Positions 12,290 through 42,144 of a stretch of 43,164 bases of DNA are shown piece after piece (the first letter of the stretch is position 1; each line of letters starts with the position of its first letter). The notes under the pieces were generated by a model. That model was given only the letters and a program-made list of their open reading frames with translations. It was not told the DNA's origin and did not search any database. The DNA lies in NCBI GenBank assembly GCA_018432955.1, contig JAHDSE010000086.1, positions 1-43,164 of the forward strand. The letters run 5' to 3'. A program made the translations under genes and the position numbers. The DNA is from Syntrophomonadaceae bacterium. Its GTDB lineage: Bacteria > Bacillota > Syntrophomonadia > Syntrophomonadales > Syntrophomonadaceae.

Positions 12290-13036
12290 CTGGATAAATC
12301 AAGCCTCCTGGAAAAGGGATTCAATATAGAAGTTTTGCCTGGAGAAAGGGTGATTGCCCTGGTGGGAAACCCCAATACTGGAAAGAGCACCATATTCAAT
12401 ACCTTAACCGGGATGAGGCAGTATACTGGCAACTGGCCGGGTAAAACGGTGTTACAGACCCAGGGTTTTTATAGATTTAACAATAGGCATTATAAGCTGG
12501 TTGACTTACCAGGGAGCTATTCGCTGTTGCCGAGTTCTCCAGATGAAGAGGTGGCCCGCGATTTTATATGCTTTGCGCGCCCTGATTGTACTATAGTGGT
12601 TGCTGATGCTGCTTGCCTGGAAAGAAATCTTAATCTGGCATTACAGGTAATGGAAATTACCCCCAGGGTAGTGCTGTGTTTAAATCTTATAGATGAAGCG
12701 AAAAGAAAGGGAATAAGTGTGGATATCCTCAGCCTGTCGAAAGAATTGGGAGTGCCGGTGGTTCCTACTGTTGCTCTGAACAACTATGGTATAGAAGACT
12801 TAAAAAAAACCATAGCTGCTCTGGTAGAAGGAAAACTTGAATGCAGTCCCCGGCGAATAGAATATGATGATGAAGTGGAAAGGCTTGTAGAGGATATTGA
12901 ATCCCATATAAATCCCATTATTCCTCGAAGTTTAATAAATTTTCGCTGGCTGGCCTTAAGAATAATAGATGGTGACAGCAAATTACTGGAGGCTATCCGC
13001 TCCTATCTTCATTTGGAGGGCGAAATATTAATATGA
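12290..13036 (+). CDS. feoB: FeoB GTPase-domain protein (split FeoB, N-terminal gene)
   Basis: This is the cytosolic G-protein part of the ferrous iron transporter. Counted from 12290, G1 is GNPNTGKST (26-34), G2 lies near MRQYTGNWPGKTV, G3 is DLPGSYSL and G4 is NLIDEA. A helical GDI/spacer-like region follows, ending LHLEGEILI. The frame then stops where normal FeoB continues into its membrane domain. The only start well spaced from GGGAGGTG (12274-12281) is a rare CTG at 12290. The nearby ATG at 12283 is out of frame and stops after four codons. The alternative is the TTG at 12335, which lacks a good site but would still keep G1. It overlaps the next gene by ATGA, implying translational coupling. 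Confidence 0.88.
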   Translation: MDKSSLLEKGFNIEVLPGERVIALVGNPNTGKSTIFNTLTGMRQYTGNWPGKTVLQTQGFYRFNNRHYKLVDLPGSYSLLPSSPDEEVARDFICFARPDCTIVVADAACLERNLNLALQVMEITPRVVLCLNLIDEAKRKGISVDILSLSKELGVPVVPTVALNNYGIEDLKKTIAALVEGKLECSPRRIEYDDEVERLVEDIESHINPIIPRSLINFRWLALRIIDGDSKLLEAIRSYLHLEGEILI

Positions 13037-14427
13037 ATGCACTAAAAGAAGTTATTCCAAGTAATGCTGAACACTTTACAGAGGATTCCCTTAGAATAAA
13101 TAAAATCAGCGATAAAATAGTAAGTAGTATATACCGGGAAGCGGAATCAATAGCTGACAGAGTAGTATCCCAGGAAAAAGGCAAAATTGACTGGGATCGC
13201 AGAGTGGATGATGTTTTGACCTCCAGATGGCTGGGTTATCCAATAATGCTGCTCCTCCTGGGAGTGGTACTGTGGCTGACGATCACCGGTGCCAATTATC
13301 CTTCTCAACTGCTGGCTCAGGGGCTTTTCTGGGGACAGGATAGACTGACAGAATTCTTTATCTGGGCTGGGTCTCCTGGGTGGTTGCACGGTTTTCTGGT
13401 TCTGGGAGTCTACCGTTCTCTGGCCTGGGTTATTTCCGTAATGCTTCCCCCTATGGCGATATTTTTCCCCTTGTTTACCCTCCTGGAGGATTTGGGATAT
13501 CTGCCCCGGGTTGCTTTTAACCTGGATAATTTTTTTCGCCAGGCCGGATGTCATGGTAAACAGGCACTTAGCATGTGTATGGGTTTTGGCTGTAATGCTG
13601 CCGGGGTAATATCCTGTCGAATTATTGACTCTCCCCGGGAAAGGGTAATTGCTATTTTGACCAATAACTTCGTACCCTGTAACGGACGTTTTCCAACACT
13701 TATTGCTCTGGCCGCAATTTTTACAGCGGGTGCCGTATCAGGGACATACAGTAATTTGCTGGCATCTGCGGCTGTTCTTGGAATAATACTAATCGGAATA
13801 TTTACCACATTTACGATATCCTATCTACTTTCCAGAACAATTTTAAAAGGTATTCCATCGTCTTTTGCCCTGGAACTTCCTCCCTATCGTAAGCCCAGGG
13901 TGGGGCAGATAATTGTCCGCTCCATATTGGACCGGACTTTATTTGTATTGAAAAGGGCCATAATAGTAGCTGCCCCTGCAGGAGGAATAGCCTGGATAAT
14001 GGCCAATATATATATCGGGAATGCCAGTATACTGACACATACCGCTGGTTTTCTCGATCCTTTCGCTGCCTTGCTGGGATTGGATGGAATAATCTTAATG
14101 GCTTTTATTCTGGGCCTGCCTGCCAATGAAATTGTTCTGCCCCTGATTATAATGGGCTATCTCTGTACAGGGAGCATGCTGGAAATGGATAGCTTGCAGG
14201 CATTAAAAGAGCTGCTGGTGGTTCAGCATGGCTGGACGCCTTTAACAGCTTTATCGGTAATGTTGTTTTCGTTATTGCACTATCCTTGCGGGACCACTAT
14301 CCTGACTATTTACAAGGAAACCAAAAGCCACAAATGGACTCTTCTTGCAGTGCTGATACCATTGAGTGTTGCCTGTATAGTATGTTTCCTGCTTAATCAG
14401 ACCGCACTTGTGTTAGGGTTCGGCTAG
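13033..14427 (+). CDS. feoB: FeoB membrane-domain protein (split FeoB, C-terminal gene)
   Basis: A 464-residue polytopic permease part of FeoB. The N-terminal 60 residues complete the spacer helices, ending in the family signature DRRVDDVLTSRWLGYPIM. Core motifs follow: LEDLGYLPRVAF (151-162), MGFGCNAAGVISCRII (183-198, with the conserved Cys187), SPRERVIAILTNNFVPCNGR and GLPANEIVLPL. The hydrophobic segments match the two gate repeats of FeoB. Its ATG overlaps the stop of the GTPase gene (ATGA at 13033-13036). There is no sign of a recent frameshift: the second gene has its own start and coupling, so the split looks functional. The GTPase and permease would have to associate as separate chains. 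Confidence 0.92.
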   Translation: MNALKEVIPSNAEHFTEDSLRINKISDKIVSSIYREAESIADRVVSQEKGKIDWDRRVDDVLTSRWLGYPIMLLLLGVVLWLTITGANYPSQLLAQGLFWGQDRLTEFFIWAGSPGWLHGFLVLGVYRSLAWVISVMLPPMAIFFPLFTLLEDLGYLPRVAFNLDNFFRQAGCHGKQALSMCMGFGCNAAGVISCRIIDSPRERVIAILTNNFVPCNGRFPTLIALAAIFTAGAVSGTYSNLLASAAVLGIILIGIFTTFTISYLLSRTILKGIPSSFALELPPYRKPRVGQIIVRSILDRTLFVLKRAIIVAAPAGGIAWIMANIYIGNASILTHTAGFLDPFAALLGLDGIILMAFILGLPANEIVLPLIIMGYLCTGSMLEMDSLQALKELLVVQHGWTPLTALSVMLFSLLHYPCGTTILTIYKETKSHKWTLLAVLIPLSVACIVCFLLNQTALVLGFG

Positions 14428-16608: not shown

Positions 16609-16636
16609 TTAATAAGCTGGGCAGTTATGTTATAAT
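16609..16636 (+). promoter_or_regulatory. Candidate promoter for the B12-riboswitch transcript
   Basis: TTAATA (16609-16614), a 16-bp spacer and a perfect TATAAT (16631-16636). Transcription would start about 16643, at or inside the 7-bp tandem repeat, and then read through the riboswitch. The rest of 16232-16608 is AT-rich DNA without a supported gene. Confidence 0.5.
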
Positions 16637-16640
16637 TTCT

Positions 16641-16717
16641 GTGAGGCGTGAGGCGTGAGGCGTGAGGCGTGAGGCGTGAGGCGTGAGGCGTGAGGCGTGA
16701 GGCGTGAGGCGTGAGAC
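16641..16717. repeat. 7-bp tandem repeat (GTGAGGC)n at the predicted transcript start
   Basis: Ten perfect copies of GTGAGGC (16641-16710) are followed by one variant copy GTGAGAC (16711-16717). The array starts 5 bp after the TATAAT and lies directly before the cobalamin riboswitch, so it would form the extreme 5' end of the RNA. Such arrays change copy number by slippage. Confidence 0.97.
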
Positions 16718-16751
16718 AAGTGAATATCTTTTGCTGGTAGCAGTTCCCCAT

Positions 16752-16985
16752 AATTGAGGTGCTGCTTTAATAGGGAAAGCGGTGAGAATCCGCTGCAGTT
16801 CCCCTTACTGTATTAGGGACGAAATCTGTAATATACCACTGTCCGGCACTCAAATGCTGTTTAACCTGAATATATGAAAATTTATACAATTTATAGATTT
16901 TATAAAACAGGTGAAATAGAATTTGAGTGCCGGATGGGAAGGTGCAGAGAATAGGATGAACTTGAGCCAGGAGACCTGCCAGCAG
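16752..16985 (+). promoter_or_regulatory. Cobalamin (adenosylcobalamin-type) riboswitch
   Basis: The conserved core is intact. Near the 5' end, GGGAAAGCGGTGAGAATCCG (16773 onward) is the L2/P3 signature. The B12 box AGCCAGGAGACCTGCC lies at 16965-16980. A perfect 13-bp stem pairs CCGGCACTCAAAT (16843-16855) with ATTTGAGTGCCGG (16921-16933), the variable P6-type arm, and is followed by GGGAAGGTGCAGA. After the box a hairpin CAGAAGT/ACTTCTG, a ribosome-site-like AAGGGAGG and a strong terminator form the expression platform. It should reduce expression of the two downstream secreted-protein genes when B12 is plentiful. Confidence 0.95.
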
Positions 16986-17033
16986 AAGTATAATACTGAC
17001 TTCTGGGGATAAGAAGGGAGGAATAATTAACGG

Positions 17034-17075
17034 ATGGTGCTTAAAAAACCGTTTTTATTAAACCTGGACTACTAG
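17034..17075 (+). CDS. Possible 13-residue leader peptide overlapping the riboswitch terminator
   Basis: AAGGGAGG (17014-17021) is followed 12 bp later by ATG and the short frame MVLKKPFLLNLDY, ending at a TAG within the loop of the terminator hairpin (17061-17090). A ribosome on this frame would cover the left arm of the terminator. It may be chance, but a strong ribosome site between a riboswitch and its terminator is unexpected if nothing is translated. The spacing is long, so confidence is low. Confidence 0.3.
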   Translation: MVLKKPFLLNLDY

Positions 17076-17090
17076 CAGTCCAGGTTTTTT
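17061..17090 (+). terminator. Riboswitch-controlled intrinsic terminator
   Basis: AACCTGGACT and AGTCCAGGTT form a perfect 10-bp stem around ACTAGC, followed by TTTT. It lies between the cobalamin riboswitch and the toroid-protein gene, the position of an attenuator. Regulation by B12 is inferred from this arrangement. Confidence 0.88.
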
Positions 17091-17122
17091 CTTATCTAAG
17101 CTTTATAATTTAAGGAGTGTGA

Positions 17123-18352
17123 ATGATGAAAAGATTTATATCCAAGTGGTCTGTATCTATATTATGCTTTTTTTCTCTGCAGGTTCTTTTTGCAGGTTTC
17201 CTCCTGCCACAGGCTGAAGCTGCTACGTCTGATAGTATTAGTTCTTCTATTGAAGAATTACAGGCTTATTATTCTGCTCAGGGAGCCTATAATGACTGGG
17301 AAGCACTGGGTCTGAGATGTACAGGAGTGGCTCCTGCTGACAAATATTCAGTTGGGGAACTATCTTCGGCATCTGATTATGCTCGTAGTATTATGGGAAC
17401 TATAGCTGCCGGGGATGAATCTGCTTCAGGAAACGCTTATATTCAGCAATTACAATCTATGCAGTCAATCGAAGGACATTTCAATACTGAGGAAAACAGC
17501 AGTTTAAATCAGACCATCTGGGCGGTAATTGCCCTGACTTTTGCAGAAGCCAATAATTACGATGTCAGCTATAATGCCGAAGCAGCACGGTCTTATATTA
17601 TCGGACAGCAGGACGTCAGCGGTGGTTTCGATGAGAGCGGTTGGGGAGTGGACGTGGATTCTACAGCCCATGCCTTGGTAGCCCTGGCTCCTGATAAGGA
17701 AGCCCATATCGCAGTGATTGACAATGCCCTCTCTTATTTAAAGGGACAACAGGCTGAGTCTGGAATATTTACTTCCTGGGGAACTGCGAGTCCGGATTCT
17801 ACTGCGGCGGTAATTGAGGCTATGGTAGCTCTGGGGGAAGATCCACAGAATCCGGCTGGAGAAGGCTGGCAGGGTAATATGCTTGATGCCTTAATGGAGT
17901 ATCAATTGCCCAATGGTGCTTTTTTCGCTTCCTGGGCACCTGATGAAGCCAATGCCATGACTACTGGAAATGCGTTGCTGGCACTGGGAGATTCACTTAA
18001 TGAAAAGTCTAAATACCTTAATGAATTAGATAACTTGAATGATTTGTCATTGGCTGTTGAAGCCTCTGATAGTTTCAGCCTGGATAGTGATGCTGCTATG
18101 GTATTATCTCTGGGCAATATGGGTGATACTTTGAAAGATGTCCTGCTTATTGCGGCACTGTTTAATACTGAAAATGAAAGTATGATAAATTACACTTACC
18201 TTAGCAGGCAATTGCAAATCGGTGAAACCGCAGTTTTGGGCTGTGGCTTTACTATCCCATCAAGTGGGGAATATGAAGTGCGGATTTACACCTGGGATAA
18301 TTGGGGAAATAAGAACCCTTTGTTGAGTCCTGTGTCTATACCGGTTAATTAG
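17123..18352 (+). CDS. Secreted alpha/alpha-toroid protein under B12 control (candidate corrinoid-binding protein)
   Basis: 409 residues. A signal peptide ends near QAEA-A (about residue 33). Residues about 40-290 contain repeated helix pairs with the pattern of prenyltransferase/squalene-oxidase toroids: IIGQQDVSGGFDESGWG, then LKGQQAESGIFTSWG, then LMEYQLPNGAFFASW, each followed by a helix like STAHALVAL. The C-terminal 110 residues look beta-rich. Prenyltransferase and cyclase catalytic motifs such as DXDD are not seen, so binding seems likelier than catalysis. The alpha domain of intrinsic factor and transcobalamin has the same fold class. Placement directly behind a cobalamin riboswitch and before a DUF4430 gene suggests B12 capture outside the cell. 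Function is inference. The ATG follows AAGGAGTG. Confidence 0.8.
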   Translation: MMKRFISKWSVSILCFFSLQVLFAGFLLPQAEAATSDSISSSIEELQAYYSAQGAYNDWEALGLRCTGVAPADKYSVGELSSASDYARSIMGTIAAGDESASGNAYIQQLQSMQSIEGHFNTEENSSLNQTIWAVIALTFAEANNYDVSYNAEAARSYIIGQQDVSGGFDESGWGVDVDSTAHALVALAPDKEAHIAVIDNALSYLKGQQAESGIFTSWGTASPDSTAAVIEAMVALGEDPQNPAGEGWQGNMLDALMEYQLPNGAFFASWAPDEANAMTTGNALLALGDSLNEKSKYLNELDNLNDLSLAVEASDSFSLDSDAAMVLSLGNMGDTLKDVLLIAALFNTENESMINYTYLSRQLQIGETAVLGCGFTIPSSGEYEVRIYTWDNWGNKNPLLSPVSIPVN

Positions 18353-18364
18353 GAGGGGGAGAAT

Positions 18365-19717
18365 TTGCTTAAGAAAAGATTAGTTTTCTTTATTCTGTTG
18401 AGCTTTTTGATAGCTTCACTTCCGGGAATGGCTCTGGGTGAGACAGTGACTACTCCTGCTGCTATTAATGCTGATCAGGTGACAATAGCAGGACAGACTG
18501 ACCCGGGGGAAAGGGTCAGTCTGTGTGTGGAAAGGGAAGATGGCAAGATATCCTATATACATCAGCTTTGTGCAAATGAAAATGGTGATTTTCAATTCAT
18601 GTTTTCCCTTAATAGTGGTGAATATTATGCCACTGTTTCTGTAAACGGTGAAAATCTGGAAATACCAGGAATTGGCATCGAGGTGATTTCAGGCGGAGAC
18701 CATGACAACGATGAAGATAAAAGCCCGGAAGTATATAGTGCCAGCATATCTGTTAAGGGTGATACGGAAAAGGGCTGGATACTGCCTGATAGTAATTGGA
18801 TCTGGACGGGGAGCTGTACAGTAATGAAAGCCCTTACCGAGGTCCTGGACCAATATGGGATAGACTATAGTATCACTTATGGAGGTTCCTATGTTCAGAG
18901 CATTGATGGTCTGGCACACAAAAAAGAAGGTTTTCCCAATAGCGGTTGGGTGTATAAGATAAACGGTGAAATTGGGGGACCGGCAAATGCAGAGAAAGTA
19001 GAAGACGGAGATTATGTTTACTGGTATTATTCACTGGATTATACGCAAGAGTCAAACATAGATGATTTGTCAATAAAGCAGCCGGAGCTGAAAAAACCGC
19101 CGGAAGAAACAGTGCCTGGCAGTGAACAGAGTGGAAAGCGGATTAGCTTTGATGATGTGGGTGATGATATAGCCTGGGCCAGGGATGCCATTGAATTACT
19201 GGCTGGCCGGGGAATAATAAAAGGAAGCGGCCAGTGTTATGAACCGCACCGTTCTATTAGCCGGGCAGAGATGCTGGCTTTACTGGTGAGAATAAATGAA
19301 TTGGAGAACAGAGAACCCATTACGGATTTTAAAGATGTAAAAGATACTGACTGGTTTTTCGATTCAGTGATACTTGCTGTTGCTCATGGATGGATAAGTG
19401 GATATGAAGATGGGACTATACAGCCGAATATGCCCATAAGCCGTAATGAACTGGCTTGTCTGCTGGACAGAGCAGCCGGTCCAGGCAAAAAACCAGATAT
19501 GACTGGTGAATTCTCTTTCAGTGATGAGAAGCAAATCCCTTCCTGGGCTTGGCAATCAGTTAAGTATGCCGTAGCAGAGGGTTGGCTTTCGGGTTATCCG
19601 GACGGCAGTTTTCGGGGAGAGGCTTATTTAAGCAGAGCCGAAGCTGCAGTGGTGATATATAATTATTTGCAAAAAATTGAGTCTGGCGAAGGAGCCTTAT
19701 TGGATGCAAATCAGTAA
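18365..19717 (+). CDS. S-layer-anchored DUF4430 protein (candidate surface B12-binding partner)
   Basis: 450 residues from a TTG after GGAGGGGGAG, 12 bp behind the toroid gene. The signal peptide ends about residue 25. Residues about 27-108 resemble a beta-sandwich with QVTIAGQTDPGERVSL. A DUF4430 domain spans about 125-226; its hallmark is SGWVYKINGEIGG followed by EDGDYVYWYYS. Three SLH motifs follow: FDDVGDDIAWARDAIELLAG (262 on), DFKDVKDTDWFFDSVILAVA (321 on) and SDEKQIPSWAWQSVKYAVAE (386 on), each with an SRxE-type segment. SLH motifs bind pyruvylated wall polymer, placing the protein on the surface. DUF4430 corresponds to the beta domain of transcobalamin-like proteins. Together with the toroid protein it could hold a corrinoid; this is not proven. 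Confidence 0.85.
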   Translation: MLKKRLVFFILLSFLIASLPGMALGETVTTPAAINADQVTIAGQTDPGERVSLCVEREDGKISYIHQLCANENGDFQFMFSLNSGEYYATVSVNGENLEIPGIGIEVISGGDHDNDEDKSPEVYSASISVKGDTEKGWILPDSNWIWTGSCTVMKALTEVLDQYGIDYSITYGGSYVQSIDGLAHKKEGFPNSGWVYKINGEIGGPANAEKVEDGDYVYWYYSLDYTQESNIDDLSIKQPELKKPPEETVPGSEQSGKRISFDDVGDDIAWARDAIELLAGRGIIKGSGQCYEPHRSISRAEMLALLVRINELENREPITDFKDVKDTDWFFDSVILAVAHGWISGYEDGTIQPNMPISRNELACLLDRAAGPGKKPDMTGEFSFSDEKQIPSWAWQSVKYAVAEGWLSGYPDGSFRGEAYLSRAEAAVVIYNYLQKIESGEGALLDANQ

Positions 19718-40983: not shown

Positions 40984-42144
40984 TCAGGGAGACATTTCCG
41001 GATAAAAAGAAGATGCTTGTTTAAGTTTACCTTGCTTGCATGCAGGACAAATGCTTACATCCCTACCCATAAGCAAGCATAGAATTTCAATGGCTGTTAG
41101 TCCTTCGAATTTGGGCTTGTATGAGGGGCTACCGGTCAGTTTTCGGCACAGTGCAAGTTTGGTCTTTTTGTTCCGATTGGCCAGTATACCATAGTGTCTA
41201 ATTTTCACAAAGCCTTTTGGAAGGATATGCATCAAAAAACGTCGTATAAATTCAATTCCCGTAAGGTTCAGGGTTTTCCCCTTACTGTCATCTTTGTAAT
41301 CTTTGACAGCAATTGTTACGGTATTTTCATCCATGGAAACAATCCTATTATTAGAAATTGCTATCCGATGTGTGTACCTCCCTAAGTACTTTACAACTGC
41401 CAGAGGACCTGAAAATGGTTTTTTGGTGTAGGTATACCAGTCCTTCGCATAGCAAATGTCCAATAAATTTTGAAAAGGCTTTAGACTCTGGTATTGCCTG
41501 GAATCCCCATAAAAATTAAGCTGATTTTGGCGGTGGTAAAGCTTCAGGTAGTATAAATATTTGCCACGGAATTTTTTAGAAAGTACTTTCACAGGAATAA
41601 AGAATTTTTTGCTACTACTCCGCCATTTGTTGAGATTGGTCAATCCCCCTGCTAATACCACTAGATGAATGTGCGGATGAAAATGCAAATCTTGCCCCCA
41701 TGTATGCAGTACAGCAAAAAAACCTGATTGTGCACCTAGATATTTTGGATCACCAGAAAGTTCATAAAGCGTTTCAGCAACAGTTTTGTACATTAAATCA
41801 TAGAGTAACTTCTGATTTTGATAAATTAATTGGTGAAGTTCCTGCGGCATAGTAAATACAAGATGGAAATAGGGAGCACTTAGAATGTCCCGGCTTCTTG
41901 CATCTACCCATACCGCATTATTAAGCCCTTGACACGAAGGGCAATGCCGGTTCCGTCATGAATTGTAAAAGATCTTTTTATACCCGCATTCCTCACATTC
42001 CAAAACATGCGCACCCAGTGCTGCAGTCTTACAGCGCATGATGTCCGCAGCAGCCTTGGCTTGCTGCGGCGAGGGTGTATAACTGTTCCTGTAGCTAGAA
42101 TAAAACTGATTAAAAACATTTGCAACGCTACCCATGGGTATCAA
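40984..42144 (-). pseudogene. IS91-family Y2 transposase interrupted by an in-frame TGA
   Basis: The frame is continuous from 42144 (TTG; ATG at 42135) to 40984 except for one TGA at 41956-41958. It encodes a zinc-binding N-terminus (CEECGYKKIFYNS, then RNRHCPSCQG after the TGA), the HUH motif HPHIHLVV (His158, His160 in read-through numbering) and the two catalytic tyrosines in KYLGRYTHR (Tyr253, Tyr257). In relatives the residue between YNS and RNRHC is Cys, so TGA replaces a zinc-ligand codon. No other damage was seen, so this is either a recent nonsense mutation or a recoded codon. The start overlaps the integrase end. The longest TGA-free frame begins at 41850, beyond the zinc domain. 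Confidence 0.85.

What the first reader, a model, noticed from the sequence alone, without database searches (positions are those of the whole stretch)
16641..19717. B12-riboswitch operon for a secreted toroid protein and an S-layer-anchored DUF4430 protein: a possible bacterial counterpart of intrinsic factor/transcobalamin
Seen: an intact cobalamin riboswitch with a terminator, then two signal-peptide proteins 12 bp apart. The first has helix-pair repeats of an alpha/alpha toroid plus a beta-rich tail. The second has a DUF4430 domain and three SLH motifs. Known: cobalamin riboswitches repress B12 uptake, synthesis or B12-sparing genes; animal intrinsic factor and transcobalamin combine an alpha6/alpha6 barrel with a DUF4430-like beta domain that sandwich B12. 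Inferred: the pair captures corrinoid at the cell surface of a Gram-positive anaerobe, splitting the two halves over two proteins with one fixed to the S-layer. No transporter gene is in the operon, so capture would feed a carrier encoded elsewhere.
Basis: partly seen in the sequence, partly recalled or inferred. Interest (0 to 1): 0.9.

Follow-up and report, generated by a model that had tools for sequence, protein, structure and literature searches.

The report
Two-piece bacterial vitamin B12 catcher
A vitamin-B12-sensing RNA switch in a Syntrophomonadaceae bacterium controls two secreted proteins that look like the two halves of the animal B12 carrier transcobalamin, made as separate pieces that probably dock on the cell surface and feed a B12 importer; such carriers were predicted in bacteria in 2007, but the two-piece, S-layer-anchored form with its own pairing domains appears new.

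Summary
A full cobalamin riboswitch (16718-16997, 96 bits), an intrinsic terminator, a secreted alpha/alpha-toroid protein (P1) and, 12 bp on, a secreted DUF4430-SLH protein (P2) are all there. In 41 of 43 homologous operons with a readable upstream region, chosen by protein similarity alone, a cobalamin riboswitch lies just upstream. In relatives the two halves are often one polypeptide (toroid-DUF4430-SLH), followed by a DUF4430 lipoprotein and a complete ECF importer. A fused relative, folded by AlphaFold2, has transcobalamin, haptocorrin and intrinsic factor as its top 15 hits among 350,542 PDB chains. The carrier predicted 'elsewhere' exists: an ECF ATPase and S component sit on contig C161 of the same genome. 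New here: split pairs, and only split pairs, carry an extra C-terminal beta domain on P1 and an extra N-terminal Ig-like domain on P2. The same two domains recur in the same order on unrelated adjacent genes (e.g. subtilase then SLH protein), so they are probably a docking pair. The general idea (bacterial transcobalamin-like surface B12 scavengers) was published by Burroughs et al. 2007. Corrinoid binding, docking and the sandwich geometry remain untested.

The parts
16609..16636 (+). promoter-like sequence (TTAATA-16-TATAAT with extended -10)
   Evidence: best-scoring promoter-like match upstream of the operon; a consensus match only
16718..16997 (+). cobalamin riboswitch aptamer (RF00174), about 85-nt insertion in a peripheral stem
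   Evidence: 96.1 bits, full model 1-189
17060..17087 (+). intrinsic terminator (expression platform)
   Evidence: 11-bp stem, 6-nt loop, U-run
17123..18352 (+). P1: secreted alpha/alpha toroid protein with C-terminal beta domain
   Evidence: ORF, Pfam, AlphaFold2 model m3382e3c6f515
17225..18043 (+). P1 toroid domain (residues 35-307)
   Evidence: family HMM E 9e-126 (the window sequence is in the training set); 41-52% identical to 11 orthologues
18044..18349 (+). P1 C-terminal 'tail' beta domain, proposed docking domain
   Evidence: present in all split pairs, absent from all fused proteins; recurs in other adjacent gene pairs
18365..19717 (+). P2: secreted Ig-DUF4430-SLHx3 protein (TTG start)
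   Evidence: ORF, Pfam
18434..18700 (+). P2 N-terminal Ig-like domain ('nig'), proposed docking partner of the tail
   Evidence: present in split pairs only; next to a tail gene elsewhere
18818..19033 (+). P2 DUF4430 / SLBB transcobalamin C-terminal-like domain
   Evidence: PF14478 5.3e-12, 50.7 bits
19136..19675 (+). three SLH repeats, S-layer/cell-wall anchor
   Evidence: PF00395 1.1e-32, 3 stretches; sequence match to solved SLH proteins

Best explanation
The operon makes a two-piece, transcobalamin-like corrinoid receptor for the cell surface. When B12 is scarce the riboswitch lets transcription pass the terminator and both proteins are secreted. P2 is fixed to the cell wall by its SLH repeats. 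P1 docks onto P2 through its C-terminal beta domain and P2's N-terminal Ig domain. This brings the toroid of P1 and the DUF4430 beta-grasp of P2 together, and they hold one corrinoid between them, as the two domains of transcobalamin or intrinsic factor do in one chain. The corrinoid is then passed, probably by a DUF4430 lipoprotein (partial gene on contig C89), to an ECF-type importer (ATPase and S component on contig C161). Shown by computation: riboswitch, domains, fold match of a fused relative, conserved operon with importer, strict co-occurrence of the two extra domains with the split. Inferred: ligand, docking, handover.
For: Riboswitch directly upstream (39-390 bp, one overlapping the called start) in 41 of 43 homologous operons, against about 2 such riboswitches per genome; in the window genome, G010, G019, G026 and G028 it is the only one detected. 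Toroid and DUF4430-SLH are one polypeptide in G019, G026, G027, G028, G046 and two adjacent genes in the window, G010, G012, G018, G030, G049. The two forms interchange on the toroid tree, at least 2 changes forced by strong branches. Complete operons read riboswitch, toroid/DUF4430, DUF4430 lipoprotein, CbiQ-type T, double ECF ATPase, second toroid, ECF S component. Fused relative model (pLDDT 89.8): PDB hits 1-15 are all transcobalamin, haptocorrin or intrinsic factor, E 7e-12 to 9e-9. Invariant toroid residues (D55, Y56, N99, D147, D149, S150, T151, H153, D197, N249 of the L067 fragment) sit at the N-termini of alternate helices, as expected round one rim. Own genome: ECF A+S on C161, DUF4430 lipoprotein on C89, two B12-binding-domain proteins, no CbiC found. 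Tail and Ig domains only in split pairs, and as adjacent pairs elsewhere.
Against: No binding data. The relative placement of the two domains is not predicted with confidence (linker pLDDT below 50, pTM 0.70; rmsd to transcobalamin about 22 A over both domains), so the sandwich is not shown. P1 alone resembles terpene cyclases, prenyltransferases and thioester-domain proteins more than transcobalamin in the PDB top 50. No sequence-level PDB hit to transcobalamin. The genome is 67% complete, so absence of corrin synthesis is not established; the negative association with CbiC in the family is not significant (Fisher p 0.16 and 0.12).
Confidence: 0.75

Rival explanations
1. P1 and P2 act independently: the DUF4430 protein and the toroid each bind corrinoid, or only one does, without forming a joint receptor; neighbourhood reflects shared regulation only.
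For: No interface is predicted; L072 has a toroid-SLH protein without DUF4430, and DUF4430 lipoproteins without toroid are common.
Against: The same two domains are one chain in sister genomes with the same riboswitch and, in L067 (G028), the same minD upstream neighbour as the window; the two extra beta domains appear only when the halves are split.
Confidence: 0.12
2. The pair captures some other ligand or cell-wall component whose supply is linked to B12 status (for example a corrinoid precursor, another tetrapyrrole or cobalt).
For: DUF4430/SLBB domains are diverse and may bind other ligands (PMC1796856, reviewer 2); the S components match folate- and riboflavin-type ECF models weakly and no cobalamin model.
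Against: Cobalamin riboswitch in 41 of 43 operons; the fold match is specifically to animal B12 carriers.
Confidence: 0.08
3. P1 is a secreted enzyme of the squalene-hopene or drimenyl-diphosphate cyclase type, B12-regulated for another reason.
For: Best Pfam and PDB sequence hits of P1 alone are class II terpene cyclases; P1 has DVDST (residues 177-181) where cyclases have DxDDT (general knowledge).
Against: The third Asp of the DxDD motif is Ser in all 12 orthologues; the protein is exported and has no cyclase second domain; fused relatives match transcobalamin far better.
Confidence: 0.02
4. The locus is a decaying remnant: the importer genes were lost from the operon and P1/P2 no longer do the job.
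For: Lipoprotein and importer genes lie on other contigs, unlike in complete operons.
Against: Both ORFs are intact, invariant residues are kept, and separate importer operons, some with their own cobalamin riboswitch, are also found in relatives (L191, L193, L194).
Confidence: 0.03

Closest known systems
Animal transcobalamin / intrinsic factor / haptocorrin
   Same: Alpha/alpha toroid plus transcobalamin C-terminal-type beta-grasp; secreted; the fused bacterial relative has these as its best PDB fold matches
   Different: Two separate proteins joined (probably) by extra beta domains; anchored to the S-layer by SLH; riboswitch-controlled; feeds an ECF importer instead of receptor-mediated endocytosis
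Bacterial SLBB 'transcobalamin-like clade' proteins predicted by Burroughs et al. 2007 (PMC1796856)
   Same: Toroid+SLBB surface proteins next to CbiO/CbiQ genes, predicted B12 scavengers; Syntrophomonas wolfei and Desulfotomaculum reducens are among their examples
   Different: A search of that paper finds no riboswitch or SLH term; the passages read report no S component and no split of toroid and SLBB over two genes with a paired set of extra domains
ECF-CbrT cobalamin transporter of Lactobacillus (PMC5997447)
   Same: ECF-type import of cobalamin
   Different: The passages searched show no secreted toroid/DUF4430 receptor or DUF4430 lipoprotein; whether CbrT is the same S-component family as here was not tested
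BtuG/BtuH surface B12-binding proteins of Bacteroidetes (BtuH: PMC8941943)
   Same: Cell-surface accessory corrinoid capture
   Different: Gram-negative outer-membrane lipoproteins of other folds (general knowledge)
Cohesin-dockerin pairs
   Same: Proposed role of the tail/Ig domains: hold a secreted protein on an anchored partner
   Different: Different domains by sequence (no Pfam hit for the tail domain; the Ig domain weakly MG2/filamin-like); binding not tested

Membership tests
Cobalamin riboswitch (RF00174) | Full aptamer above gathering score, B12-box | tested here: met
   96.1 bits against 31.5, model 1-189, B12-box intact
Cobalamin riboswitch (RF00174) | Expression platform before the first gene | tested here: met
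   Terminator 17060-17087
Cobalamin riboswitch (RF00174) | Ligand-dependent control | not testable with these tools
   Needs in-line probing or a reporter
Transcobalamin / intrinsic factor family | N-terminal alpha/alpha toroid | tested here: met
   P1 by Pfam and AlphaFold2
Transcobalamin / intrinsic factor family | C-terminal SLBB beta-grasp (DUF4430) | tested here: met
   P2 PF14478 5e-12; fused relative fold match
Transcobalamin / intrinsic factor family | Both domains in one chain | tested here: not met
   Two ORFs in the window; met in sister genomes
Transcobalamin / intrinsic factor family | One cobalamin sandwiched between the domains | not testable with these tools
   Domain arrangement not confidently predicted; no ligand docking available
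Bacterial SLBB transcobalamin-like scavengers (Burroughs 2007) | Secreted or cell-surface protein with SLBB domain | tested here: met
   Signal peptide, DUF4430, SLH
Bacterial SLBB transcobalamin-like scavengers (Burroughs 2007) | Operon with CbiO/CbiQ-type transporter genes | tested here: not met
   Absent from the window operon; present in most relatives' operons; ECF A+S of this genome on another contig. The paper calls this a general, not an obligatory, feature
Bacterial SLBB transcobalamin-like scavengers (Burroughs 2007) | Host lacks B12 biosynthesis | tested here: inconclusive
   CbiC not found in a 67%-complete genome or in 8 relatives with close toroids, but the association is not significant
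SLH S-layer-anchored proteins | SLH repeats at one end of a secreted protein | tested here: met
   Three repeats, 1.1e-32
Class II terpene cyclases (SHC type) | DxDD catalytic motif | tested here: not met
   DxDS in all 12 orthologues

The most novel reading that the evidence does not exclude
The tail (C-terminal, gene 1) and Ig (N-terminal, gene 2) domains are a general, undescribed docking pair with which Gram-positive bacteria plug secreted proteins onto an anchored partner encoded next door. The window's B12 receptor would be one use of it, a subtilase and a cohesin-domain protein others. The modular split would let a ligand-binding pocket be assembled from two polypeptides on the S-layer.
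Probability: 0.45. Interest if true: 0.7.

Novelty: new variant of a known kind. Interest (0 to 1): 0.6.

Why it matters
How Gram-positive anaerobes capture scarce corrinoids outside the membrane is poorly known, and the bacterial transcobalamin hypothesis of 2007 seems, in the open papers searched here, never to have been tested. The riboswitch link in 41 of 43 operons turns a domain-based guess into a strong functional prediction. The split form offers a clean test (two purified proteins, one ligand), bears on where the animal B12 carriers came from, and suggests a simple docking pair for surface display.

Tried and rejected
Sequence profiles of toroid or DUF4430 against the PDB did not reach transcobalamin; only the fold comparison did. 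A P1-only fold search listed terpene cyclases, prenyltransferases and complement thioester proteins in its top 50. A negative association between corrin synthesis (CbiC) and this operon in the family was not significant (Fisher p 0.16 for close toroids, 0.12 for any toroid). The idea that the split is a sequencing or assembly break was rejected: each gene has its own signal peptide, P2 has a Shine-Dalgarno run, each has an additional domain, and five relatives have the same arrangement. The (GTGAGGC)n array was checked for a role and is found nowhere else in the genome or in the relatives' loci. Papers linking DUF4430 or SLBB with cobalamin riboswitches: none found in the open library.
Full report
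OBSERVATION. The window is contig C41 of a 1.98-Mb, 67%-complete genome. At 16718-16997 lies a complete cobalamin riboswitch, followed by a terminator at 17060-17087 and two genes 12 bp apart. P1 (409 aa) has a signal peptide, an alpha/alpha toroid (Pfam 2.8e-6; AlphaFold2 pLDDT 88.5) and a seven-strand beta tail. P2 (450 aa) has a signal peptide, an Ig-like domain, DUF4430 (5e-12) and three SLH repeats (1e-32).

RIBOSWITCH LINK. I collected loci from relatives by protein similarity alone and then looked for riboswitches. Of 43 operons with a readable upstream region, 41 have RF00174 just before the first gene, 39-390 bp away with one overlapping a called start. The exceptions are L130 and L131. 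Relatives carry about two cobalamin riboswitches per genome, so chance cannot explain this. In the window genome and in G010, G019, G026 and G028 it is the only cobalamin riboswitch detected.

OPERON. My HMM maps and Pfam/NCBIfam give a recurrent order: riboswitch, toroid with or fused to DUF4430 (often with SLH), DUF4430 lipoprotein, CbiQ-type T component, double ECF ATPase, second toroid, ECF S component. The window has only the first two genes. In the same genome a DUF4430 lipoprotein gene, cut by the contig end, is on C89, next to the subtilase and regulator genes that lie downstream of the operon in relatives. ECF A and S are adjacent on C161, the T gene being cut off. Separate ECF T-A-S operons with their own cobalamin riboswitch occur in G009, G018 and G027.

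FOLD. Relatives G019, G026, G027, G028 and G046 have toroid and DUF4430 in one chain. The L067 (G028, S. palmitatica) fragment, 52% identical in the toroid to P1 and 38% in DUF4430 to P2, was folded with 20 sequences (pLDDT 89.8, pTM 0.70). Against 350,542 PDB chains, its best 15 matches are all transcobalamin, haptocorrin or intrinsic factor, E 7e-12 to 9e-9. The rmsd over both domains is about 22 A because the linker is not confidently placed: the domains match, the sandwich is not shown. Invariant toroid residues lie at the N-termini of alternate helices, consistent with one functional rim; this is inference.

SPLIT AND DOCKING. Six split pairs (window, L064, L065, L066, L068, L070) carry a C-terminal beta 'tail' on P1 and an N-terminal Ig domain ('nig') on P2; no fused protein has either. 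Split and fused forms alternate on the toroid tree (at least two changes forced by strong branches). Searching 121 genomes with each domain shows tail and nig again in adjacent genes in the same order. These are a subtilase with C-terminal tail overlapping by 4 nt an SLH protein with N-terminal nig (G066, G112), a cohesin-domain protein and a CFI-box protein (G051), a pair whose second gene has SLH (G104), and G107. Tail hits without a nig neighbour exist (G075, G104:C9). I infer a docking pair; L072, where the toroid is fused directly to SLH, shows another way to anchor it.

HOW IT PROBABLY WORKS. Low B12: the riboswitch permits read-through; P2 anchors in the cell wall; P1 docks on it; toroid and DUF4430 close round a corrinoid; the lipoprotein passes it to the ECF importer. 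Shown: genes, riboswitch, domains, fold match, genome context. Inferred: ligand, docking, handover. The genome has two B12-binding-domain proteins (C84, 856 aa; C91, 599 aa), so it uses corrinoids. CbiC was not found, but the genome is incomplete and the family-wide association is not significant.

WHAT IS KNOWN. Burroughs, Balaji, Iyer and Aravind (2007, PMC1796856) defined the SLBB superfamily, noted bacterial toroid+SLBB surface proteins with CbiO/CbiQ neighbours and paired SLBB proteins, predicted B12 scavenging, and suggested transfer to animals from Gram-positive bacteria. A term search of that paper finds no riboswitch or SLH, and the passages read do not describe the S component or the split form with paired domains. 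No experimental follow-up was found in the open library searched, which lacks most subscription journals. I therefore rate this a new variant of a known, predicted kind.

Noticed in passing
16641-16715: (GTGAGGC)10.7 perfect heptamer array between the promoter-like site and the riboswitch aptamer, so probably inside the leader RNA; unique in the genome and absent from relatives' leaders.
   Followed up: partly
L179, L180, L098, L181, L182: Adjacent secreted gene pairs unrelated to B12 carrying the same tail and Ig domains in the same order, e.g. subtilase-tail followed by Ig-SLH (G066, G112) and cohesin-tail followed by Ig-CFI-box (G051).
   Followed up: yes
12335-14427: feoB appears as two ORFs, a GTPase part (233 aa) and a Gate/FeoB_C membrane part (464 aa) with overlapping ends; either a real gene split or a frameshift.
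   Followed up: no
L104 3-743 (G000:C89): Partial DUF4430 lipoprotein cut by the contig end, next to subtilase and a pyruvate-phosphate-dikinase-regulator-like gene, the genes found downstream of the operon in relatives.
   Followed up: partly
L072 12099-13652: Toroid fused directly to SLH repeats without DUF4430, with DUF4430 present only in the downstream lipoprotein.
   Followed up: yes
L089 6048-6230 and 11514-11697: Two cobalamin riboswitches on one strand of a toroid/DUF4430/ECF cluster, one before the ECF operon and one before a 1378-aa multi-DUF4430 protein.
   Followed up: no
40984-41850: Y2_Tnp-type putative transposase (PF04986, 2e-60) near the contig end.
   Followed up: no
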